NCBI GenBank assembly: GCA_022841825.1 | Contig: JALHQT010000008.1 | Coordinates: 1-64,000, forward strand | DNA length: 64,000 bases | Reading direction: 5' to 3' | Source of the DNA: Anaerolineae bacterium | Lineage (GTDB): Bacteria > Chloroflexota > Anaerolineae > Aggregatilineales > Phototrophicaceae | In this document: one piece after another, positions 1 through 20,495 of the stretch | Layout of the letters: every line of letters begins with the position of its first letter | Numbering within the stretch: position 1 is the stretch's first letter | Position numbers and translations under genes: made by a program | The notes under the pieces: model-generated | What the model was told of the DNA's origin: nothing | Seen by the model: the letters and a program-made list of their open reading frames with translations, nothing else | Database searches by the model: none

Positions 1-63
1 GCCAAATGCGCTGCCTTCAACTTTGGTCTTTGGCTCAATCATTTGCTGGAGCGCCCTTCTCAT
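1..63 (-). CDS. Possible 5' end of a gene running off the left edge
   Basis: An ATG at 63 on the minus strand opens 21 codons that stay open to the window edge and begin MRRALQQMIEPK. It follows the VirB6/TrbL-like gene on the same strand by 65 bases, so it could be the next gene of the same conjugation-type operon. A purine-rich GAGAG lies about 12 bases upstream. The fragment is too short to recognise and may be chance. Confidence 0.25.
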   Translation of the reverse strand, partial: MRRALQQMIEPKTKVEGSAFG

Positions 64-128
64 GCTTTTGCTACTCTCATCCTTTAGTATCGGACAAGCC
101 TATTTAGGGTGAGGGCTAACGCGCGGTA

Positions 129-2459
129 TCATCTTTCATTGCCTTTCTGGTTAATCTGCCCGTCCATTGCCCCACTTACTTCGATGTGCGTCGGGATGAG
201 GGCGGCGTAGCGTTCGAGGCGTTCGACGTTGGCGCTGGCAGTCGCGGACGATTGCCCCGCCGCGCGGAAGCCCTCGGCGATGGCGTCACGCAGCGCATCG
301 CTCATACGTCCGTCGGGCGACGCCTTGACCTCGCGAATGATCGTCTCCGCCTGCGCGCCGGAGATGCCGAGCCGCAGCGCCCCATCGGCGAACACGCCCA
401 GCCGCGTCAGGTCGGCGGTGATGGGCGGCTGTCCCGGCAGCGGCACGACGCCGAGCGCCCGCGCCAGCGCATCGGCGAGCGACAGGTGGTCGATGCCCGT
501 CGCGCCGCCGCGCCCTGCTTGAGTGATAGCAGCGCCCAGCGCGCCCGCAACATCGGCGATGCCGTCGATGCGCAGGGTGGTTGTTGTAGGGGATGCACCA
601 GCGGACGAGGCACGCCTCGTCCCTACAGAGTCCATTTGTTCGGCGATGTGCTGTTCCATCTCCTCGCCGCGCTGGTCATCGGCGAAGGATTCGCGGGCGA
701 TGAGGTCGTCAGCGCGAGAGGGGCGGCGGAAGGTGGCGAGCGGTTCGCCATCTTCATCTTCGATCGTCCACGTTTCGTCGGCGAGTGGGCGGCGCTTGGA
801 CTTGGCGGCGGCGGGCAGTGTCGTATCGTCGAGCAGGTCGCCGACGGCGGGGTTGAGCATCGGGCGGCTGAGGACGCGCCCACGCTCGTCCAATTGCGCC
901 GCCGCCGGATCGCGATCCGTCAGCAGCATAGCACCGACCGCCGGACCCGCCACGCCGCCGACGACAGGCAGATCGCGCGCCACGCGGCGGACGACCGCGC
1001 CTTCGACGAACTGCTCTGCCGCTTCACCGAGCGCTGTATCGCGCAAGCCCGGCAGATGCGCCAGCGTGCGCGCCGCGCTGGTCAATGTCTGATTGCCGCC
1101 GAAGGTCAGCCCGGCTGCCTGCGCCTGCGTCGCGCCCGCGTTGAGCGCGCTGATTCCTGCCAGCGCGTTGGCGCTTGTGCCCGCCGCGCTTCCCACGACA
1201 GCCGCCGCGCCACCCGCCCCCAGCGCAGCCCCGGCGGTCGCCGTGAGCGCCGCCGCGCCTGGGGTGACGATCACGCCGCCCGTCGCCTGCCCCAGCGCGA
1301 CGAACAGGCGGTTGAAGGCGTTCCAAACCGCCTTGACCCCTGACCAGAGCACGATCAGCATGAAGACCAGGCAGATCAAGCCGACGCCAAGCGCGACCAT
1401 CGCCCCGCCGCCCGCCGTAGAGGCAAGGAAGAGCGCCACCACCAGCGCCTGAATCAGCGCGATGACGACCGTCTGGATGAGCAGCTCGATCCACTGGTTG
1501 ATGATCGACTGCGCGATGGCTTCAGTGCGGCGGAAGAAGGCGAACAGGATGGCGATGCCGAACGAGACGAAGGTGATGCCCTGGGCGAGCGTGATGAGCA
1601 GGTAGACGAGCTGCTCGACCACGCCGAAGACGACCAGCGGCCACGCCGTCAGCAGGCGACCCTGCGCGGACGCCGCCATCGCCAGCACGCTCTGCCGCTC
1701 GGCGTCGGTCATGAGCGGGAAGGTCGGCGCGCTGCGAGTCACCTGGAAGAACGAGCCGGGGTTGAGCCACTCGGTGGGGATGGGTCCGGCGGTGTAGCGC
1801 CCGGTGAGGGCGTCCGGCGGGTGCGGCGGGCAGGTGAGACCGCGCCGCGCGGGGTGATAGCCCATCACGTCGATGCCATCGGCGCGCAGGTACGAGAGCG
1901 CGACATCCAGCCCGTCAATACGACCCCCGCCAGCGGGCAGGTAATCACCCAGGTGATCGCAGAGCGCGCCCATCGCCAGATCGCTGGTTTCGACGCTGCC
2001 GAGCGGCGCGAACGCCGTGCCAATGCTCCCTTGCAAGCCCGCCAGCGCGGAGACGTAGAAGCCCTCGCTGAGGGCGGCGCGGAAGTCGATCAACCCCAGG
2101 TAGAGCTGCGGTCCGAGCGAGTAGAACAGCACGCCCGCCAGGTACCAGGCGATGGCGGAGCGCGGGCGGACGACATCGAGACGGACGAAGGCGGCGAGCA
2201 GGTAGGTGATGCCCAGCACGAGCAGGGCGACGACGAAGGCGAGCGTGACGCCGACGCGCAGGCTGTCGTTGGTCAGCGCGATGAGCGGGGCGAAGGCGAC
2301 CTGCGCCAGCCAGCGGTTCATCAGCTCGACCGAGTAGCCCATGGTGACCAGCCCGCGCAGCAGACCCCAGTGCATCGCCGCGAGGTTGAGCAGCGTGTTG
2401 TACCAGAAGGCATCGATGGCGATGCGGAACTCGGCGAACAGGTCGATGGGCAGGGGCAT
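129..2459 (-). CDS. VirB6/TrbL-like multi-pass membrane protein, putative conjugation component
   Basis: A 776-residue protein. The N-terminal two thirds carry several long hydrophobic stretches, including about residues 65-90, 105-125, 275-310 and 325-375, followed by an Ala/Gly-rich segment at about 390-450. The C-terminal third is hydrophilic, with DNA-coded linkers and no membrane segment. This layout (polytopic core, small-residue-rich region, soluble tail) is that of VirB6/TrbL proteins, which form the inner-membrane channel of type IV secretion systems. No diagnostic motif is visible, so the family is inferred from architecture and from the island context. The start has a CGGAG ribosome site 8 bases upstream. 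A REP-like palindrome is embedded in frame in the tail (603-622) and codes for about VGTRRASSAG. Confidence 0.5.
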   Translation of the reverse strand: MPLPIDLFAEFRIAIDAFWYNTLLNLAAMHWGLLRGLVTMGYSVELMNRWLAQVAFAPLIALTNDSLRVGVTLAFVVALLVLGITYLLAAFVRLDVVRPRSAIAWYLAGVLFYSLGPQLYLGLIDFRAALSEGFYVSALAGLQGSIGTAFAPLGSVETSDLAMGALCDHLGDYLPAGGGRIDGLDVALSYLRADGIDVMGYHPARRGLTCPPHPPDALTGRYTAGPIPTEWLNPGSFFQVTRSAPTFPLMTDAERQSVLAMAASAQGRLLTAWPLVVFGVVEQLVYLLITLAQGITFVSFGIAILFAFFRRTEAIAQSIINQWIELLIQTVVIALIQALVVALFLASTAGGGAMVALGVGLICLVFMLIVLWSGVKAVWNAFNRLFVALGQATGGVIVTPGAAALTATAGAALGAGGAAAVVGSAAGTSANALAGISALNAGATQAQAAGLTFGGNQTLTSAARTLAHLPGLRDTALGEAAEQFVEGAVVRRVARDLPVVGGVAGPAVGAMLLTDRDPAAAQLDERGRVLSRPMLNPAVGDLLDDTTLPAAAKSKRRPLADETWTIEDEDGEPLATFRRPSRADDLIARESFADDQRGEEMEQHIAEQMDSVGTRRASSAGASPTTTTLRIDGIADVAGALGAAITQAGRGGATGIDHLSLADALARALGVVPLPGQPPITADLTRLGVFADGALRLGISGAQAETIIREVKASPDGRMSDALRDAIAEGFRAAGQSSATASANVERLERYAALIPTHIEVSGAMDGQINQKGNER
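603..622. repeat. REP-like palindrome inside a coding sequence
   Basis: An inverted repeat with half-site GGACGAGG, a 4-base loop and CCTCGTCC, followed by CTAC and preceded at 586 by GTAGGGG. It belongs to the same dispersed family as the elements at 2831, 3229, 8605, 30372, 33641, 39094 and 50272. Here it is read in frame within the VirB6-like gene. Confidence 0.75.
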
Positions 2460-2548
2460 GGCGGCGCTCCGGCGATTCGGCTCGTCACCAGCGTATCAGG
2501 GTGGAGGGAAGAGAATTGCGTAAATGTGACAGGGGGAGAGATGGAGGA

Positions 2549-3181
2549 TTACGGATGCTGCGGGAAGAACGTGTCCGCCTCCCACTGCGCGGGATTGTTC
2601 GCCACATACTCGCGGAAGCGCGTTAACTCACCCTCGCTGCGGATGACATGATCGTGATAGCGCGGTTGCCATAAGGCGATCCCATCTTCGATAACGCCCG
2701 TCGTTCGTGCGGCTCTTGTGACGCCCGCCTTGTACCCGCCGACGACATCACCCAAGGTGGGCGGGCGTTTCGGTGTGGCGGATGCGATGGATGGGATTTC
2801 GGATACGGCGGACGAGATTTCGGATGTGGCGGACGCCAAGAATGGCGTCCCTACGACCCGCGATCCTGTAGGGACGGGATTATTCCCGTCCGTTTGGTCA
2901 TTTCCCAATGTGTCGGAACCGCTATGGTTCACCACGATCGCATGCACATGGTTCGGCATCACGATCCAGGCGTCGATCTCCACATCCGCCCACCGCCGGG
3001 GAATGCTCGCCATTTCCTCGTAGGCGATGCGCCCTAAGGGCGACAGGTGCATGGTGCCATTGACGATCTCGCCGAAACATTCGGCGCGGTTGAGGGTGCA
3101 AATCGTGACAAAATACGCGCCCGACTGCCGATAATCGTATCCCTTCATGCGCGGCGATTTGCGATTGGGCAGGGGGTTCAT
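2549..3181 (-). CDS. REP-associated tyrosine transposase (RAYT, IS200-like Y1 family)
   Basis: A 210-residue protein. RAYTs are single-domain HUH endonucleases that nick and join single-stranded REP palindromes. Visible signatures are the N-terminal YDYRQSGAYFVTICT strand, the HUH motif in MPNHVHAIV, and the C-terminal WQPRYHDHVIR segment with the presumed nucleophilic Tyr, followed by FREYVANNPAQW. The ATG at 3181 was chosen because homology begins just after it; the longer upstream frame reads repeat DNA. A 45-residue low-complexity stretch between the HUH motif and PPTLGDVVGGYK is translated from a REP pair (2831-2891) plus a short tandem repeat of GGCGGACGAGATTTCGGAT type. This element therefore carries its own substrate inside the gene. 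Confidence 0.85.
   Translation of the reverse strand: MNPLPNRKSPRMKGYDYRQSGAYFVTICTLNRAECFGEIVNGTMHLSPLGRIAYEEMASIPRRWADVEIDAWIVMPNHVHAIVVNHSGSDTLGNDQTDGNNPVPTGSRVVGTPFLASATSEISSAVSEIPSIASATPKRPPTLGDVVGGYKAGVTRAARTTGVIEDGIALWQPRYHDHVIRSEGELTRFREYVANNPAQWEADTFFPQHP
2831..2891. repeat. REP pair inside the RAYT gene
   Basis: Two adjacent palindromes: GGACGCCA-AGAA-TGGCGTCC followed by CTAC (2831-2854), then GTAG followed by GGACGGGA-TTAT-TCCCGTCC (2872-2891). The CTAC and GTAG borders face each other. Almost the same pair occurs upstream of the gene at 3229-3289, in the same orientation. Confidence 0.85.
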
Positions 3182-3228
3182 GACAGAGGTTACCCAATTG
3201 GACAGGTAGGCGAGATTTCGGATGTGGC

Positions 3229-3289
3229 GGACGCCAAGAATGGCGTCCCTACAGGATCGTTGGTTGTAGGGACGGGATTTTTCCCGTCC
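3229..3289. repeat. REP pair upstream of the RAYT gene
   Basis: GGACGCCA-AGAA-TGGCGTCC plus CTAC at 3229-3252, then GTAG plus GGACGGGA with a T-rich loop and TCCCGTCC at 3270-3289. It is a near duplicate of 2831-2891 and lies in the 263-base gap between the RAYT start and the end of the TIR-NACHT gene. The rest of that gap shows no gene. Confidence 0.85.
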
Positions 3290-3444
3290 GCGAGACCTTC
3301 CTTCGTTTGATCGTAATACCACATTGCCCGATTCTCGAAAACCGATTCGCGCCTTCGGCGCAAAAATACAGTGATATGACCGAAAAATCTCATTTGGGGC
3401 TGGCGCTACGCGCCTGCGGCTACGCCGCACCGCCCCACCAGCGA

Positions 3445-6400
3445 TCAGCGCCCTTTGAGATGGGGGACGACCAACGCAGCCCGAAAACCGAGACTGCTGG
3501 AGCGAACGTCCGGGCCGCTGAGGTCGTAGTAGCGGCCGGCGGCACGCGCGCGGTCCCGATAGCTGAGCCACGACCCGCCACGCAGCGCCCGGCTAACGGT
3601 GCCGGTTAGATCAGTGTTGTCCTGATTTTCGTAGGTGTTCAGACACCACTCCCAGACGTTCCCGGTCATGTCGAATGCGCCGCAAGGTGAAATACCATCA
3701 GGAAAGATGCCAACGGCGCTGGTCTGACGAATGTTCGTCTCGCTCGTGTTGGCTTTTGCCGGGTCGAAATCGCCGCGATAACTGTAGGTGCGTCCATCGG
3801 TGCCGCGTGCAGCCACTTCCCATTCGTATTCGTGAGGAAGGCGGATCTCTGCCCTCACCCCCGACCCCTCTCCCGAAGGAGAGGGGAGAAGACCTGCCTC
3901 GAGATACCGATAGGTCAGCCACCGGCAGAACGCCACCGCCTGATACCAGTTGACGCGCTCCATCGGGTGGTTGTCATAGCGAAAGGCTGGTTCTGCGGGT
4001 CGTTTGTCGCTCTCGCTCGCCGCTAGTCCTTCCCACCACTCGGCGCAGGTGTAGCCGCGTTCGCTGTCGTCGTTCTGGAAAGCGAGATACTGCACCTGGG
4101 TGATGAGGTATTTCGAGACGCGGTAAGGACGTTTGATCTCGATTTCTCGCGGCGGGTTATCGCTCTGTTCAGTTTCGCCGATTGAGTACGTCCCTGGCTG
4201 AACTTCGTCCGCCCATGCGATGTCGGGCAGCCCGTTATCCGTGCGCAAACCGATGTATGGGCGATTGTCACGGATGGCGGCTAACGCACGCCCAATCTCC
4301 GCTCGCTGCTGTGCTGGCAGCCCAAGATCGATGACCAGCCTTGCGACTGTGTTTCGTAACCCATTGAGTACCGCTTGTTCTGCTGAGAACTCATCACATT
4401 CAATCTTTGGCAGACCGTGTTCAATGGCAACATCCAACGCAAGAATTGCTGCCTGCGCGGCAGAGCCGTCTTTCAGATAAGGCGAAAACCATCGCGGGAG
4501 CATCCGCCAGACGTCCGGTTCGCGGTCGGTATACATCAACTCGTCTGCCGCCAAACGTGCCACATTTCGCCACAAATCAGTGTTCTTCAGCACGCGCTCT
4601 GTTATTCCCTGCGGAAAGCGATCCGCCACAGCGATGTTCGCCAGGCGGACTCGATCATGTGTTGTGAGGTAGCATGCGGCAAGATGTTCCTGAAAGCTGC
4701 GATGCGCAAAACGGAAGTGCTCGTCGCGTCCGGAGACAAGGATGCCCGCGCGCTGCTCGAGATGTTTCCAGACTCGCCCTGGTCGGAGATCATCATCGAT
4801 ACGAAGGATGGCATCGCTGAGGAGGCTGCGATGAAATTCCGTTGTATCGCTGCCGTCCGACATCTCATGCACTTGTCGCGCTACATCTTCGAGTACCACT
4901 CGCAACTGCTTCTCGTCGAGGTCAAGCATGTCAGCGATTGAGCGTGACATTCCCTTACGTATCGTCCACTTCGCGAGCATCAGATCGAGCGCTTCCCGAT
5001 AGAGAGCGCCGCGCGTCTCTGGAAGCCGGTGCTCGCCAGGAGAACCGAGCCATATTGCGGCGAGGAGTGTGAAGAATAATGGGCTGCGCCTAAGATCCTC
5101 CGGCACGCTTTCGAGCGCCTCAAAAAACGCGTTTGCCTCCGCTTCCGCCTGCGCAGGTAATATCTGTTGAAATAGAGCCTTTGCCAGTTCTTGAAGTCGC
5201 CTCATATCAAGCGGTCTGAGTTCACAGCGCCAATAACCTGGAAGTGACCACTCGCCGAGCCGATAGGCGTAAGGACGACTGGTGACGATGCTGCGCGCTT
5301 TGCGATAAGAATCGAGCGCCTTCACTAGCGCTTTGACCTGTTCTCGTCGGCGCGAGTCCGAAGCATCGGGTATTTCATCAAGTCCATCCAACAGGACGAT
5401 TGCGTCGCCATCTTCCAAGCGTTTTCGTAGATCGGTTACGTAATTCCCCAGCGTTGCGCCCAGTACGTATTCACGCACGTATTTCCAGAAATGCTCGATC
5501 GTTGGCATCTCAACTGGCGAATCATTACTGGGTAGAGCCGGGAAAACACGAGACACAAGGTCGCGCAGCTCGATGTAGAGGGGCGTGTATGCGCCTAGAA
5601 GCCAATCGCGCAATGCAGGAAGCCCGGCGTTGCTTGGAACACTGTCGTCTCCCATGCCTCGCAGCAGCTCACCTGCCAGACACAGCGCCAGGTGACGCAC
5701 GAAGCTGCTCTTGCCGCTGCCTGCGTCGCCCACCAGAACCATACGAGGCTGCACACTGGCGGCGTCGTGGGCTTCCATATACCAATAATGTTCGCCATCG
5801 TCATAGTCTCTAAGTCGAATCTTGGTTCCTAGTCCATCTACAATTTGCTGCAGCGCAGACTCGCCAACGTTCAGACTCTGCCATTCTCGTAGGGAGTCAG
5901 GACGTGCTGCTTTGTCTGACGGAATGTCACCCTGTCCAGGATTATCCCGTCCGCACCACCAATCGATGATCTGTTTATCTTTGGTTTTCACAGTGATGCC
6001 AAAATCGACCGGTAGCGGCACATAAACATCGAGCAGGCTTACTCGTTCATTTCGAGTGGTGATGTCCGCTAGCGAGACATTTGCCCAGGGGCGCATAAAC
6101 CAACTTCGGAGATAGGCTTTCTGCCGCGTTGCTGCATCCACGGGATCCGGATGATGCCCGTAATTGATGACGATGCCCGTGGCGCTGCCATGCTCGACAT
6201 GCTGTTCGATTGAGATGGTGGCACCTTTGAGCGCGTCAGGTGTCGGGGTGGGCGTTTCGCCGGGGATTGCTCGCTTAAGAGCTGCATACCCACGTTCGCG
6301 CCCGAGCGTTTGAAAATCCACTGCCTGCAAGTCGTCTACGCCGATCTTGATCAAGTCAGCAGGGATCTCGAGGCGCGACATAATGAGCGGGACAATTCGC

Positions 6401-6648
6401 GTCTTTTTGTCGCGTGCAATAGCGATTTCTTTCTTCACCCATTCTGACTTCAGCGCTTGGACAGTGACAATAACGAGTAGAGCATCGGCGGCGTCGATCG
6501 CCTTCTCGATCGCGCGCTCCCAGACATCACCGCCTATGAGACCATCAACATCAATCCATGCCCGATAGCCGTCACGGATTAAGTCCGTGGCAATGCTTTC
6601 GGCAATATAACGATCATCATGGGAGTAACTTATGAAGACCTGCGGCAT
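3445..6648 (-). CDS. TIR-NACHT-FGE protein, NLR-like immune NTPase candidate
   Basis: A 1067-residue, three-part protein. Residues 1-125 are a TIR domain (FISYSHDD start; SEWVKKE places the presumed NADase glutamate at E74). Residues 300-600 are a NACHT STAND NTPase with Walker A GDAGSGKS at 307-314 and Walker B LLDGLDE near 419-425. Residues from about 815 on are a formylglycine-generating-enzyme-like (C-type lectin fold) domain with MTGNVWEW and RGGSW motifs. Bacterial TIR-NACHT proteins are known antiphage factors in which target sensing triggers NAD depletion; that role is inferred here. Residues 142-164 hold a short beta-rich motif shared with the divergent 152-residue protein. A 16-residue in-frame insertion (LLPSPSGEGSG) comes from repeat DNA. 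The ribosome site GAGGG lies 6 bases before the ATG. The C-terminal 40 residues resemble a diversity-generating retroelement variable region. Confidence 0.85.
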   Translation of the reverse strand: MPQVFISYSHDDRYIAESIATDLIRDGYRAWIDVDGLIGGDVWERAIEKAIDAADALLVIVTVQALKSEWVKKEIAIARDKKTRIVPLIMSRLEIPADLIKIGVDDLQAVDFQTLGRERGYAALKRAIPGETPTPTPDALKGATISIEQHVEHGSATGIVINYGHHPDPVDAATRQKAYLRSWFMRPWANVSLADITTRNERVSLLDVYVPLPVDFGITVKTKDKQIIDWWCGRDNPGQGDIPSDKAARPDSLREWQSLNVGESALQQIVDGLGTKIRLRDYDDGEHYWYMEAHDAASVQPRMVLVGDAGSGKSSFVRHLALCLAGELLRGMGDDSVPSNAGLPALRDWLLGAYTPLYIELRDLVSRVFPALPSNDSPVEMPTIEHFWKYVREYVLGATLGNYVTDLRKRLEDGDAIVLLDGLDEIPDASDSRRREQVKALVKALDSYRKARSIVTSRPYAYRLGEWSLPGYWRCELRPLDMRRLQELAKALFQQILPAQAEAEANAFFEALESVPEDLRRSPLFFTLLAAIWLGSPGEHRLPETRGALYREALDLMLAKWTIRKGMSRSIADMLDLDEKQLRVVLEDVARQVHEMSDGSDTTEFHRSLLSDAILRIDDDLRPGRVWKHLEQRAGILVSGRDEHFRFAHRSFQEHLAACYLTTHDRVRLANIAVADRFPQGITERVLKNTDLWRNVARLAADELMYTDREPDVWRMLPRWFSPYLKDGSAAQAAILALDVAIEHGLPKIECDEFSAEQAVLNGLRNTVARLVIDLGLPAQQRAEIGRALAAIRDNRPYIGLRTDNGLPDIAWADEVQPGTYSIGETEQSDNPPREIEIKRPYRVSKYLITQVQYLAFQNDDSERGYTCAEWWEGLAASESDKRPAEPAFRYDNHPMERVNWYQAVAFCRWLTYRYLEAGLLPSPSGEGSGVRAEIRLPHEYEWEVAARGTDGRTYSYRGDFDPAKANTSETNIRQTSAVGIFPDGISPCGAFDMTGNVWEWCLNTYENQDNTDLTGTVSRALRGGSWLSYRDRARAAGRYYDLSGPDVRSSSLGFRAALVVPHLKGR
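3851..3890. repeat. Dispersed GCCCTCACCC-type repeat inserted in frame
   Basis: It begins GCCCTCACCCCCGACC and continues into a CCCTCTCC / GGAGAGGG hairpin. Read on the minus strand it adds about PSPSGEGSGVRA to the FGE domain, just before its RLPHEYEWE motif. Related elements lie at 8236-8282 and 8523-8668. Confidence 0.7.
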
Positions 6649-9597: not shown

Positions 9598-11901
9598 ATG
9601 GCTCGAAAGAAGATGTCAATCACTTCCACAGAGCAAGCAGTTAGAAAAGTTCTCCATGCGACACTATCTAGGGCTGCTGCTCATACGGAGCACGTTTACA
9701 TTTTGGCGACCCTTGCGTTGTTGGCCGCTAACCCTCAACCTGATTTGATTGCAACCTTGGGCCCAATCGTGAGTGGTATTGGGATCAACGCTATGTCGTC
9801 TCTGCTTCAGAGACTTTCTGAAGGAGAGCGCATCTCCAATCTAGCAAGAGAAGTAGGCACCATTGTTGCCAATAGCAACATAGAGACCGAGTTGAAAAAT
9901 GAGGTTGTGGTACAGGCTTTGGGCAAGGTGCTTCGCTCACAGAGACATCAGATTATTGCGCTTGATCAAGTAGACAAAGGAATTGCAGAGAGACTATCTG
10001 CTTTTACGGAGCGACTACAAGGTCAACTCGAAAACATAAGTTTGACAGGCGATCAAACGCTCGGTCTAGTAAAGGAAATTCATGCGTCAGTTGTGGTAGG
10101 CTCCCATGAAACAAGTCATTCTGACGAATCTTTCGCTGTTCAAGGCTACGCCCAGTTTATGCTTGAAGCCATCGCGGAGCGCAAAAGACGGCATATACCT
10201 TTGTTCGCGGAGCACAGGGAATTCTCGATGTTTGCCACTCGTGTTGACGATTCAAATGGCTCGCTCGTTCCTGTTGCTAGACTCTTTTCGGTTTCACCTC
10301 GATTAATACTGCTCGGTGAGTCTGGCGCGGGAAAGACTGACGCTCTGTGGAAAATGGTGGTAGATGTCTGTGAACGCTTGATAGGCGGCGGCGACGAGTT
10401 AATACCAGCTAAAGTAGACTTGCGAATGTGGAGTCCAAACTTCGACTTGCGCAATCTAGTTCAAGGGGCTTTCGCCAGTGTCAATGCCTCGGTAGCGACA
10501 GTTGATGATCTACTTCGGCAAGGGAAGTGTCTGTTGCTGGTTGATGGGCTAAATGAAATTTCTGCTGGAGAGACAGGAGGAAATCGTACTTCCGCTAAGC
10601 AAGACATCGAATTCTTCATGCGTAACTACCCGAACAATAGTTTTGTGTTCTCCTGCAGAACCGCTGACTACGACTCTGACATGGTCACGTGGCAAGAACA
10701 AGCCTTGCCTATCTATGAAATTCAGCGGCTGAATGCATCTCAAATCGAAGATTTTACTCAAAGATACTTTCTTGACGACCCGACTCTAGGAGTGAAGTTT
10801 CTTCACGAGATTGGGTTCTACTCTCCAGACCAATGGCACCATAAGGACTCACTACTTCACCTTGCTCGAATACCGTTGCACCTCCAAGTCATGATATCGA
10901 CGTACAGAGATACCCGTACACTTCCAAGGAGCAAAGGGAAGGTAATTGAGGTACTTGCTACTCATATGATGAAACAAGACAAACGGTTCAGAGTCATACA
11001 GGTTTCTCCAGAAACCAAGGGCCGAGTGCTTGGCAATCTGACCTTGCAGGCTATTCATGCAGGTTACTACCTTACACTTCCACGTAGTTTCGTTGAAGTG
11101 GAACTTATGGAGCACATTAATGCGACTCGTGCTGATTCCACACTACCAAATGGGGTGACCGCGCAGTCATTGTTGGAAGAACTGCTGTCCAACAACTTTC
11201 TTCTTCAGGTCACTTCAAGAAGTTGGGAAAACAACTTGGAATGGCTGCATCAGCTCATCCATGACTACTTTTTGGGAAAAGAAATTATCAGAGTCCTTTT
11301 ACTCACTGAGGGACAAGGAACTGATCGGCAAAGGCTGCGTAGTCAGCTGCGACAACATACGGCGCTATTCGATATCCCGTGTCAGATGGCATTAAGCCTC
11401 TTGGCACCGAGTCATGGAGCTAAGCTACTAGAAATGCTCCTTCAGATAAACGGTGAACTTGCCTACCGCGCGTTTGGAAATCAGGATCGTGAAATTGCAG
11501 AGCAGCTTGGGCCGAGATTTGCCGACCTAATTATGAATTTGGTGGAAAATTTCGAGTTAAGCCTTGAACGGGTTGGATTTCACATGCCGTTTGTCCCCAT
11601 TGTTGACAGCATCCTTGACCGATTTAAGCGCAGCGATGATGCGACCCGGCGGACAATTGCGAAATCGATGTTGGAAGTACCAATTAGGCATCAGGGGACT
11701 CCTGCCGCCAAAATTGTGCTTGACAAGTTTGAGTCCTGGACGGCGAATCGTGATGAGTTTGTGAAGTTTTACGCTGCCAAGGGGTTGTGGGGTAGAAATC
11801 CTGGGCGAGCCGCCCATGCACTTAAGGAAATTCTGGAGGGCGGCTCGCCCGAAGCAAGGAGACTTGTGAAGGATCTCAGGCAAGAATGGGGAATAGAGTA
11901 G
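9598..11901 (+). CDS. NACHT-domain STAND NTPase, predicted defence protein
   Basis: A 767-residue protein. Residues 1-165 are mostly helical with hydrophobic stretches and no recognised effector domain. Residues 235-480 are a NACHT NTPase with Walker A GESGAGKT at 240-247 and Walker B LLLVDGLNE at 312-320, followed by the SCRTADYDSD sensor region. The C-terminal 250 residues are helical and repeat-like, perhaps a sensor. NACHT proteins in bacteria are NLR relatives that act in antiphage defence; function here is inferred. The gene is visibly richer in A and T than its neighbours and stands alone on the plus strand between two paralogous minus-strand LuxR-type genes, which suggests separate acquisition. 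The start is preceded by AAGGG. Confidence 0.8.
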   Translation: MARKKMSITSTEQAVRKVLHATLSRAAAHTEHVYILATLALLAANPQPDLIATLGPIVSGIGINAMSSLLQRLSEGERISNLAREVGTIVANSNIETELKNEVVVQALGKVLRSQRHQIIALDQVDKGIAERLSAFTERLQGQLENISLTGDQTLGLVKEIHASVVVGSHETSHSDESFAVQGYAQFMLEAIAERKRRHIPLFAEHREFSMFATRVDDSNGSLVPVARLFSVSPRLILLGESGAGKTDALWKMVVDVCERLIGGGDELIPAKVDLRMWSPNFDLRNLVQGAFASVNASVATVDDLLRQGKCLLLVDGLNEISAGETGGNRTSAKQDIEFFMRNYPNNSFVFSCRTADYDSDMVTWQEQALPIYEIQRLNASQIEDFTQRYFLDDPTLGVKFLHEIGFYSPDQWHHKDSLLHLARIPLHLQVMISTYRDTRTLPRSKGKVIEVLATHMMKQDKRFRVIQVSPETKGRVLGNLTLQAIHAGYYLTLPRSFVEVELMEHINATRADSTLPNGVTAQSLLEELLSNNFLLQVTSRSWENNLEWLHQLIHDYFLGKEIIRVLLLTEGQGTDRQRLRSQLRQHTALFDIPCQMALSLLAPSHGAKLLEMLLQINGELAYRAFGNQDREIAEQLGPRFADLIMNLVENFELSLERVGFHMPFVPIVDSILDRFKRSDDATRRTIAKSMLEVPIRHQGTPAAKIVLDKFESWTANRDEFVKFYAAKGLWGRNPGRAAHALKEILEGGSPEARRLVKDLRQEWGIE

Positions 11902-18656: not shown

Positions 18657-18661
18657 TTGTT

Positions 18662-18687
18662 CGCTCAATCTTCCGAGTCATTGAGCG
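18662..18687. promoter_or_regulatory. Inverted repeat just upstream of the recombinase start
   Basis: CGCTCAAT (18662-18669) and ATTGAGCG (18680-18687) form a perfect 8-base inverted repeat with a 10-base spacer, 5 bases before the recombinase ATG. It could be an operator, a translation-blocking hairpin or part of a recombination site. Confidence 0.5.
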
Positions 18688-18692
18688 TGGTT

Positions 18693-20495
18693 ATGGCGAA
18701 GCGAAAGTCGAAAGTCACCGTCGCACCGCAACCTGGTTGGGCACTCTACCTGCGCGTGAGCGACGAGGAGGCGCAGAACCCGGATGCCTCGAAAGAGCGA
18801 CAGCGGTTCTACTTGCGCAAGGGCATCCTGGAGCGCTCTGAGCTGCCGGTGATCGAGGAGTATTCCGACCTGCTCACCGGACGCAACCCGCTGCGTAAGG
18901 ATTACCAGCGCATGCTCCAGGATGCGCGCCTGGGCAAGTTCTCGCATGTGGCGGTCGAGCGCGCGGATCGCTTCGGACGCAACGATACAGAGGCACTGCG
19001 TGCCATCGACGAGCTGCACGAGCTGGGGGTCGCCGTACGTTTTGCTAACCAACCCGACCTCGACCCGATGGACCCGGATGACCGCATCATCGTCACGCTG
19101 TCATTCACGCTCGCTCGCCGCGAGTCGATGCTGCTGGGGATGCGCGTGAAAAGCGCTGCGCAGGCAAAGCGCCAGGCAGGCGGATTCGTCGGGCGACCGC
19201 CCGATGGCTACATCAGCATTCAGGACGAGCAACCCAACCGAAAAAGCTATGCTAAACGTACTCACCATGTCGAGCTAGACGTAGAGCGAGCACCAATCTG
19301 GCGGTTGGCGTGGGACTTATTGTTGACAGACAAGCTGACATTGGCGGAAATATGCGAGGAGCTGCACATAAGAGGATATCGCTATCGGAGCGGGCGCGCG
19401 TTTGTGAGCATGCGTCGTAGTGGAAAGCGAGGTGCCAACTACGGCACACTTTCCCATATTTTCCATAATTGGGCATATGCGGGTTGGATTGTGGACGAAG
19501 ATAATGGCTATCCCCCGAAAACTCTGCGCGGAAACTGGGAACCGATTGTGACGACCGAGGAGTTCGAGCGAGGTTTGGCTATTCTGGAGCGGCGCTACGT
19601 TCAACGGCTTGCTAAACGAAAGCATGACTACCTTCTAAAAGGATTGATCTACTTTGAACTCGGTGGAGATCGCGAACTGGTCAAGCTTACAGGCTCAACC
19701 TCTAACGTTGGGAGAATAGGAGGCGGAACCGCTTACTACTGTATTCCAGGGAGTAACATCAACTTCTTGTGTCGCCAAGTTGAGGCTGAAGTGGCCAACC
19801 AAGTGACGCGAATCAATGTCGATAGCGAACTGCTGCCGACTATTCGCGCGGCATACACAAACGACATCGCTGATAAACTGGCAGTCGTATTGCCGGATGA
19901 GCGATTGAGGATCGAAACCGCACTTCGCACTCTTGAAGAAGAAGAAGCACGCACCTTGCGGCTATTCGCTGCGGGGAAAGTGACTGAGCACGTCTGGGAC
20001 AACCTGTGGAAGGAATGGCAGGAACGTAGACAGAAATTGCGCATTAGCCTCGAGCTTGCGGACGCAGAGCAAAGTCATTATGTCGAGAATTTGGAAGGTG
20101 CGCTGCAAATCATTGCAAAACTCGGGGTGTTGTATAATCAATTATCGCGCAGTGATCAGAAAGAACTGCTGCGGCTTGTGGTTGAGCGGGTTATCGTTGA
20201 CCCGGAGGGTTTTGTGAGGCTGGAATTGCGCGCGCCCTTTGCCTATCTAAAGCAGATAGCAAATGGAGTGTGCCAGGAATTGGCGGGAAAACAAAAGACC
20301 AGCACACATGCTGGTCAATGTTCGGACTGGACCTTAGATTGTGACTCCGGAAGGACTCGAACCTTCAACCTATTGATTAAGAGTCAACTGCTCTGCCAAT
20401 TGAGCTACGGAGCCATCACATCACGAGATTATAGCAGAGTGACAATGGGCGTCAAGGCGCGTTGCGCTTCGCTTTATCACCCATCATCTGCATGA
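18693..20495 (+). CDS. Large serine recombinase (integrase) reading into tRNA-Lys
   Basis: A 600-residue protein from ATG 18693. The N-terminal resolvase domain has YLRVS with the catalytic Ser at residue 23 and the arginine-rich ERADRFGRN. A recombinase domain follows (about 150-290). The usual zinc ribbon is degenerate: the first CxxC is replaced (GLIYFELGG) though later Cys remain. A coiled-coil segment (EEEARTLRLFAAGKV) precedes the end. From about residue 530 the frame reads through a tRNA terminator and the antisense of tRNA-Lys, so the native C-terminus was probably about 525-535 residues and the present stop comes from host DNA. It likely catalyses island integration and excision. Confidence 0.9.
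   Translation: MAKRKSKVTVAPQPGWALYLRVSDEEAQNPDASKERQRFYLRKGILERSELPVIEEYSDLLTGRNPLRKDYQRMLQDARLGKFSHVAVERADRFGRNDTEALRAIDELHELGVAVRFANQPDLDPMDPDDRIIVTLSFTLARRESMLLGMRVKSAAQAKRQAGGFVGRPPDGYISIQDEQPNRKSYAKRTHHVELDVERAPIWRLAWDLLLTDKLTLAEICEELHIRGYRYRSGRAFVSMRRSGKRGANYGTLSHIFHNWAYAGWIVDEDNGYPPKTLRGNWEPIVTTEEFERGLAILERRYVQRLAKRKHDYLLKGLIYFELGGDRELVKLTGSTSNVGRIGGGTAYYCIPGSNINFLCRQVEAEVANQVTRINVDSELLPTIRAAYTNDIADKLAVVLPDERLRIETALRTLEEEEARTLRLFAAGKVTEHVWDNLWKEWQERRQKLRISLELADAEQSHYVENLEGALQIIAKLGVLYNQLSRSDQKELLRLVVERVIVDPEGFVRLELRAPFAYLKQIANGVCQELAGKQKTSTHAGQCSDWTLDCDSGRTRTFNLLIKSQLLCQLSYGAITSRDYSRVTMGVKARCASLYHPSSA
20288..20316 (-). terminator. Intrinsic terminator of tRNA-Lys
   Basis: On the minus strand GACCAGCA, a 4-base loop and TGCTGGTC form a perfect 8-base stem, followed by TTTTGTTTT. 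It lies 25 bases past the tRNA 3' end and inside the plus-strand recombinase frame. Confidence 0.85.
20342..20414 (-). tRNA. tRNA-Lys(CTT)
   Basis: A 73-base cloverleaf. The acceptor stem GGCTCCG pairs with CGGAGTC (one G-U), discriminator A. The anticodon stem TTGA/TCAA encloses CTCTTAA, giving anticodon CTT. The T loop reads GGTTCGAGTCC. CCA is not encoded. The 3' end faces the recombinase, as is typical of a tRNA used as an integration site. Confidence 0.95.
20428..20455 (-). promoter_or_regulatory. Promoter of tRNA-Lys
   Basis: On the minus strand TTGACG, a 16-base spacer and TATAAT, with the -10 box 13 bases before the tRNA. It overlaps the last codon of the upstream DUF4013 gene. Confidence 0.8.

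What the first reader, a model, noticed from the sequence alone, without database searches (positions are those of the whole stretch)
3445..3565. C-terminus of the TIR-NACHT-FGE gene looks like a DGR variable region
The last 40 residues follow the RGGSW...GFR pattern of CLec-fold targets of diversity-generating retroelements. In the codons after RGGSW many variable positions have the form NNC or NNT (ctc agc tat, gac, tac tac gac ctc agc, tcc agc agt ctc), as expected if AAC/AAT codons of a template were mutated at adenines. An immune sensor that is hypermutated in this way would be an adaptive element.
Basis: partly seen in the sequence, partly recalled or inferred. Interest (0 to 1): 0.7.

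Follow-up and report, generated by a model that had tools for sequence, protein, structure and literature searches.

The report
Hypermutation target without its machinery
The end of this bacterial immune-sensor gene carries the marks of a region rewritten by a targeted mutation machine (a diversity-generating retroelement), but the assembled genome shows neither the machine nor its template, so the sensor looks like a frozen or borrowed receptor.

Summary
The gene at 3445-6648(-) encodes TIR-NACHT-FGE. Of 29 codons after RGGSW, 25 end in C or T, the maximum of 1039 windows in the gene; other FGE genes come close, so this alone proves nothing.

Comparative evidence decides. In the same genus and order, TIR-NACHT-FGE genes carry real template/variable repeat pairs. 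Against the G006 template the window differs at 23/32 A but 17/96 other bases. GGTTTTCGG...CGTCCCCCATCT occurs five times in 101 genomes: three template-backed variable regions, one more genus-mate gene, and this gene. The noncoding fold downstream is 84-86% identical to proven targets, the FGE body 58-59%.

Yet this assembly (95.7% complete, 21 contigs) shows no DGR reverse transcriptase, no Avd over cut-off and no template. A RAYT-like gene lies where relatives keep the template.

Best reading: an orphan DGR target, frozen after loss of its machinery or acquired without it. Machinery missing only from the assembly is not excluded. Ongoing hypermutation is not shown.

The parts
3445..6648 (-). 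TIR-NACHT-FGE gene, 1067 aa, intact
6301..6639 (-). TIR_2 domain (aa 4-116)
5170..5742 (-). NACHT domain (aa 303-493)
3475..4203 (-). FGE-sulfatase (C-type-lectin-like) domain (aa 816-1058)
3458..3592 (-). stretch aligned to the G006 template repeat (23 of 32 template A, 17 of 96 other bases changed)
3481..3567 (-). variable region codons after RGGSW through GFR, 25 of 29 NNY
3458..3469 (-). homing (IMH-like) motif CGTCCCCCATCT, identical in variable regions of G006 and G085
3396..3436 (-). cruciform-like fold: outer stem carrying two hairpins with GTA loops, shared with DGR targets L188, L199, L193
2549..3181 (-). RAYT-like (REP-associated tyrosine transposase) gene where relatives keep template and RT; below the curated cut-off

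Best explanation
An orphan DGR target. The gene encodes a STAND-type immune sensor: ligand binding by the C-terminal FGE/C-type-lectin domain is presumed to drive NACHT oligomerisation and activate the TIR effector (inferred from the domains). The tip of the lectin domain was rewritten in the past by a DGR of the kind that still sits beside TIR-NACHT-FGE genes in genus-mates: error-prone reverse transcription of an AAC/AAT-rich template, homing at the GTCCCCCATCT site, helped by the downstream fold (target-side features shown by comparison; past action inferred). Template, reverse transcriptase and Avd are not in the assembled genome. Most likely this lineage lost them or received the gene without them, leaving one fixed, intact receptor variant that could be served again if a matching DGR entered the cell (inferred).
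For: TR/VR pairs in TIR-NACHT-FGE genes of G006, G007, G085 and Ca. Chlorohelix. A-specific divergence from the G006 template, 23/32 against 17/96, and first two against third codon positions 17/24 against 2/12. Homing motif found five times in 101 genomes, reversed control 0. Cis module: five strong hits outside this genome, all at FGE 3' ends. Module more conserved than the coding FGE body, and 3 of 16 pairs with changes on both sides. No RT other than intron type, no Avd over cut-off, no template in the assembly. A second gene of this genome (L030) also fits relatives' templates without one of its own.
Against: 4% of the genome may be missing and the gene is 3.4 kb from a contig end, so absence is not proven. 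Intact motif and fold suggest recent or continuing use. No strain variation could be seen. The window needs two extra codons against the templates. The A-specific test is given for the best-fitting of five templates tried (two of the five aligned only at the 3' end) and is not corrected for that choice. L205 has the motif but not this fold.
Confidence: 0.6

Rival explanations
1. Active remote target: the organism carries RT, Avd and template on a stretch or mobile element missing from this assembly, and the sensor is still being diversified in trans.
For: Assembly 95.7% complete. Homing motif and paired fold are intact. Remote targets are documented (PMC7517822). In G017 a template and variable region sit on a 5.9-kb contig in a genome without a Brt match, so cassettes do get cut off by assembly.
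Against: 21 contigs only; RVT_1, BPP-1 Brt and a genus-mate DGR RT find nothing but two intron loci; template-like pattern 0 hits (a pattern that misses some templates, such as that of L192).
Confidence: 0.3
2. Ordinary FGE C-terminus with no DGR history: the family signature and its codon usage mimic a variable region.
For: RGGSW...GFR is family-wide; other FGE genes of the genome reach 0.79-0.85 NNY; no template or RT in the assembly; some tails without known template rank close to the window in fit to templates.
Against: Homing motif and noncoding fold shared with proven targets and, among strong hits, only with FGE 3' ends; third codon positions conserved while first and second differ.
Confidence: 0.06
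3. The downstream hairpins are a REP element of the neighbouring RAYT and have nothing to do with a DGR.
For: A RAYT-like gene starts about 215 bp downstream; REP elements are hairpins with GTAG-type motifs (recalled, no call).
Against: One match to the 86-nt module in this genome (21 candidates, 9 scored); the five strong hits in 100 relatives are all at FGE 3' ends, three with a template in the same locus. The 16 weaker listed hits were not examined.
Confidence: 0.04

Closest known systems
DGR-diversified STAND/NACHT sensors of multicellular bacteria (Dore et al. 2024, PMC10907252; passages)
   Same: C-terminal FGE/CLec domain carrying the variable region on a NACHT or other STAND protein, some with TIR; filamentous Chloroflexi are among the hosts named
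   Different: Those have RT and template; here neither is in the assembled genome
Remote variable proteins of cyanobacterial DGRs (PMC7517822; passages)
   Same: CLec variable genes away from an RT, IS200/IS605 transposases near some, one case (all3226) with remnant TR-VR homology and no RT nearby; removal of components after selection suggested
   Different: Passages describe remote targets assigned to a DGR of the same genome; here no DGR is seen in the genome
BPP-1 DGR target site (Guo et al. 2011, PMC3240598; passages)
   Same: Homing site at the 3' end of the variable region followed by a GC-rich hairpin/cruciform
   Different: BPP-1 type: one 7-10 bp stem with a GRNA tetraloop; here an outer stem carrying two hairpins with GTA triloops. 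Triloop (GRA) hairpins are reported for nanoarchaeal DGRs (PMC4372165, passages)
TIR-NACHT-FGE gene of Ca. Chlorohelix allophototropha plasmid (L183)
   Same: Same domains, 32% identity over 96% of the protein, nearest FGE body in the tree
   Different: Has a template 343 bp after its variable region; no RT among the 24 features listed in 21 kb (that gene table is incomplete)

Membership tests
Diversity-generating retroelement (complete element) | DGR-type reverse transcriptase | tested here: not met
   RVT_1 finds two loci, of which the one scanned is a group II intron protein; Brt 0 matches at E<=1e-5; genus-mate DGR RT finds only those two loci. Assembly 95.7% complete.
Diversity-generating retroelement (complete element) | Template repeat with A at the variable positions | tested here: not met
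Diversity-generating retroelement (complete element) | Accessory protein Avd | tested here: not met
   best bAvd match 25.5 bits, cut-off 40, a small protein beside sugar-metabolism-like genes
DGR target gene (variable protein) | Variable region near the 3' end, in a CLec/FGE fold | tested here: met
DGR target gene (variable protein) | Differences from a template concentrated at template A | tested here: inconclusive
   no own template; against the template of a genus-mate 23/32 A and 17/96 other bases differ
DGR target gene (variable protein) | Homing (IMH) motif at the 3' end of the variable region | tested here: met
DGR target gene (variable protein) | Hairpin/cruciform shortly downstream of the variable region | tested here: met
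   form differs from the BPP-1 type
DGR target gene (variable protein) | A-site variation between strains or reads | not testable with these tools
   one genome per species held; no read data or metagenome scan
TIR-STAND (NACHT) conflict/immune protein | TIR effector plus NACHT domain | tested here: met
   in PADLOC nearly all matches are of the TIR part alone
TIR-STAND (NACHT) conflict/immune protein | Anti-phage activity | not testable with these tools
   needs experiment

The most novel reading that the evidence does not exclude
Variable region, homing motif and cruciform form a portable DNA cassette that has moved onto TIR-NACHT-FGE sensors of different descent, and genomes can carry such sensors without any DGR of their own, as frozen receptor variants or as ready targets for a DGR that arrives in trans. 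The window's cassette resembles those of G006 and G085 while its FGE body groups with Ca. Chlorohelix.
Probability: 0.4. Interest if true: 0.7.

Novelty: new variant of a known kind. Interest (0 to 1): 0.55.

Why it matters
DGR-rewritten immune sensors are among the closest things bacteria have to diversified immune receptors. A target that keeps its homing signals but shows no machinery in its genome makes testable whether hosts fix a useful receptor and drop the mutator, or borrow the mutator from other elements. It also shows how such targets can be found: surveys that start from the reverse transcriptase miss targets that do not lie next to it (noted for metagenomes in PMC8144416, passages), while a search for homing motif plus fold finds them.

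Tried and rejected
Rejected: a template or near copy in this genome (for a second gene). Rejected: the bAvd-like protein on C5 as Avd (25.5 bits, cut-off 40; no RVT_1 match on that contig).

Considered, not used as proof: the NNY fraction alone (other FGE genes reach 0.79-0.85). The ranking by fit to foreign templates puts the window 11 of 95. My pattern did not catch the G007, G085 and first G006 variable regions as rows, since their motif is not GNVWEW; several tails without known template score nearly as high or higher (L206, L094), and some template-backed ones score lower (L081, L149). The first tree (44 rows) lacked those genes too; the second (42 rows, without L200 and the Bacteroidota-like rows) has many weak forks, an unsettled bootstrap, and the G085 row fills 48% of columns.

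No remnant of a cassette downstream: beyond the fold, window 1-3395 has only weak matches (E>=0.099) to nine loci of relatives. Phage records hold only weak FGE-like matches (10 records).

Papers on DGR targets in genomes without a DGR: the search listings showed none that I recognised by title or abstract start; six papers were seen as passages only. The library lacks most subscription papers.

Not done: strain or read variation, viral-contig scans, mapping of variable residues on the model, family scan of the second intron RT locus.

Full report
What was claimed.

The observation. The gene is at 3445-6648(-), 1067 aa, with TIR_2, NACHT and FGE-sulfatase domains over their Pfam cut-offs. After RGGSW 25 of 29 codons end in a pyrimidine against 583/1068 in the gene, the maximum of 1039 windows (ties overlap it), binomial 3.3e-4. 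Neither sign is diagnostic: RGG and GFR are conserved in FGE-family proteins, and 12 other FGE tails of this genome have 0.48-0.85 NNY.

Machinery in this genome (5.9 Mb, 21 contigs, 95.7% complete). RVT_1 finds two loci, both 607-aa frames. The one scanned has RVT_1, intron maturase and HNH domains; it fits the group II intron RT model best, just under its cut-off (291 against 300 bits). The BPP-1 reverse transcriptase has no match here at E<=1e-5. It matches in 23 of 101 genomes, in 11 of them at E<1e-20, four of these among the 14 genus-mates. The DGR RT of genus-mate G007 finds only the two intron loci; RVT_1 detects that RT at 48 bits, so one search should have seen one. bAvd has three matches, all below cut-off. 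blastn of 3350-3720 finds other FGE genes at the GNVWEW stretch; within the variable region the best other hit has E 0.55. The G006 template has no significant match (best E 0.056). A template-like pattern has 0 hits here and 19 in 16 of 101 genomes, reversed control 0. One of the 19 lies in a G006 variable region, not all were checked to be templates, and the pattern misses some known ones such as that of L192.

Relatives supply the kind. A self-comparison for near-repeats differing at A recovers the BPP-1 pair, 12 of 16 loci fetched around relatives' DGR RTs, 1 of 15 homologue loci, the Ca. Chlorohelix plasmid locus (18 of 23 mismatches at A) and 6 of 79 genome-contig loci; in the window none. 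It can miss pairs: L197 gave none there but has a template-like hit. Apart from BPP-1 and L200 the variable regions end FGE-type genes. The targets of G006 (L188), G007 (L189), G085 (L199) and Ca. Chlorohelix (L183) are TIR-NACHT-FGE. So this architecture is a DGR target in this genus, in line with Dore et al. 2024 (PMC10907252, passages); Kaur et al. 2020 link FGE-type domains of conflict systems to DGRs (PMC7159879, passages).

The window against those templates. I aligned five templates from the genus, family and order. The G006 template aligns along its whole length, with one gap of two codons: 23 of 32 A and 17 of 96 other bases differ (Fisher 3.7e-8). At 12 AAY codons the first two positions differ 17/24 times and the third 2/12 (p 0.003). 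These are for the best-fitting template, uncorrected. The G007 template gives 23 of 35 mismatches at A, that of G029 (L193) 12 of 26; those of G009 and G085 aligned only in short stretches. In an ordinary gene third positions would vary most. Extra codons in a variable region against its own template also occur in L190 and L195. Ranked by fit to foreign templates the window is 11 of 95; seven of the ten above it have a template. Supporting evidence only.

The homing module. GGTTTTCGG-N(9-15)-CGTCCCCCATCT occurs five times in 101 genomes: both variable regions of G006, that of G085, one in G005 (L205, TIR-NACHT-FGE; G005 has no Brt match, no template-like hit, 86% complete) and the window; reversed control 0. 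The G006 and G085 templates end CCCACACCT and CCCACATCT, like the IMH/IMH* difference of DGRs (PMC4372165, passages). After the stop codon lies a fold, 3396-3436: an outer stem with two GTA-loop hairpins. In a hand alignment of window, L188, L199 and L193, 60 of 61 pair cells are kept and 3 of 16 pairs change on both sides. From GFR to the end of the fold identity to L188 and L199 is 84% and 86%; for 600 bases of coding FGE body upstream 59% and 58%; for the next 300 bases 53% and 56%, near shuffled (52%). As an 86-base query the module matches 20 of 101 genomes at E<=0.01 (at most 9 candidates scored per genome). The five hits under 1e-9 outside this genome lie at FGE 3' ends: L199 and L247 (G085), L248 (G052), L188 (G006), L249 (G017). 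L199, L188 and L249 have a template in the locus; L247 against the L199 template has 22 of 34 mismatches at A; L248 has a 54-base template-like piece. The 16 weaker listed hits were not examined. L205 has the motif but not this fold.

Descent. The FGE body of the window pairs with Ca. Chlorohelix (95/90, 91/90), while G006, G007, G085 and G029 (L193) form another clade (100/99). The window's 3' module resembles G006 and G085. The module thus seems to have moved between sensors (inference).

Where the cassette should be. In G006 and G007 template and RT lie directly downstream of a target. Here a RAYT-like gene follows (58 bits, cut-off 80), then a 776-aa protein without family match, then the contig end. 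IS200/IS605 transposases near variable genes are noted in cyanobacteria (PMC7517822, passages).

Structure. The 292-aa C-terminal part models at mean pLDDT 90. Its matches are mostly FGE-type enzymes, with the DGR variable protein TvpA (2y3c) at rank 15, E 2.6e-14; by sequence TvpA is the second-best PDB match.

More candidates in this genome. The 3' ends of all 19 FGE genes were compared with 18 loci of relatives. L030 (C2:544273) aligns over its variable stretch with the template of G016 (74% over 130 bases) and has no near copy in the genome. L040 and L027 resemble a G007 gene (L202), L040 also past its stop; L202 has no template in its locus. L035, L038 and L039 have weaker matches (E about 1e-4). 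The other 12 have none of 60 bases or more.

Verdict. A DGR target by the target-side tests that could be run, not a complete DGR. Whether the machinery is lost or unassembled cannot be decided here; I favour loss, or transfer without it (0.6), over an unassembled active element (0.3). The architecture is known; unusual are the absence of machinery in the assembled genome, the two-hairpin triloop fold and the apparent mobility of the 3' module.

Noticed in passing
G000:C2:544273-544941 (L030): A second FGE gene of this genome whose variable stretch aligns with template repeats of relatives (74% over 130 bases to G016) but has no template here.
   Followed up: partly
G000:C4:556841-557308 (L040) and C1:1457781-1458416 (L027): Two more FGE genes resembling a G007 gene (L202) across the variable stretch, L040 also past the stop codon; no template found beside L202.
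   Followed up: partly
L189 8219-12079(-), L199 160-4386(+): DGR-targeted TIR-NACHT-FGE proteins with a DUF559 nuclease-like domain inserted inside the FGE domain.
   Followed up: no
L183 12028-12145 and 12371-12488: Ca. Chlorohelix plasmid TIR-NACHT-FGE gene with a variable region and a template 226 bp further on, no RT among the features listed in 21 kb.
   Followed up: partly
window 2549-3181 (-) and 3220-3290: RAYT-like gene; an about 60-base stretch (ggacgccaagaatggcgtccctac...) near 2828-2891 inside it recurs near 3227-3290 (seen).
   Followed up: no
window 9598-11898 (+): A second NACHT protein, 767 aa, 3 kb from the sensor.
   Followed up: no
window 18657-20492 (+): Serine recombinase (Resolvase and Recombinase domains), possibly of a mobile element.
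   Followed up: no
G000:C1:1394658-1395461 and C2:401036-401839: Two 607-aa reverse transcriptase frames of group II intron type with almost equal scores, likely two copies of one intron.
   Followed up: no
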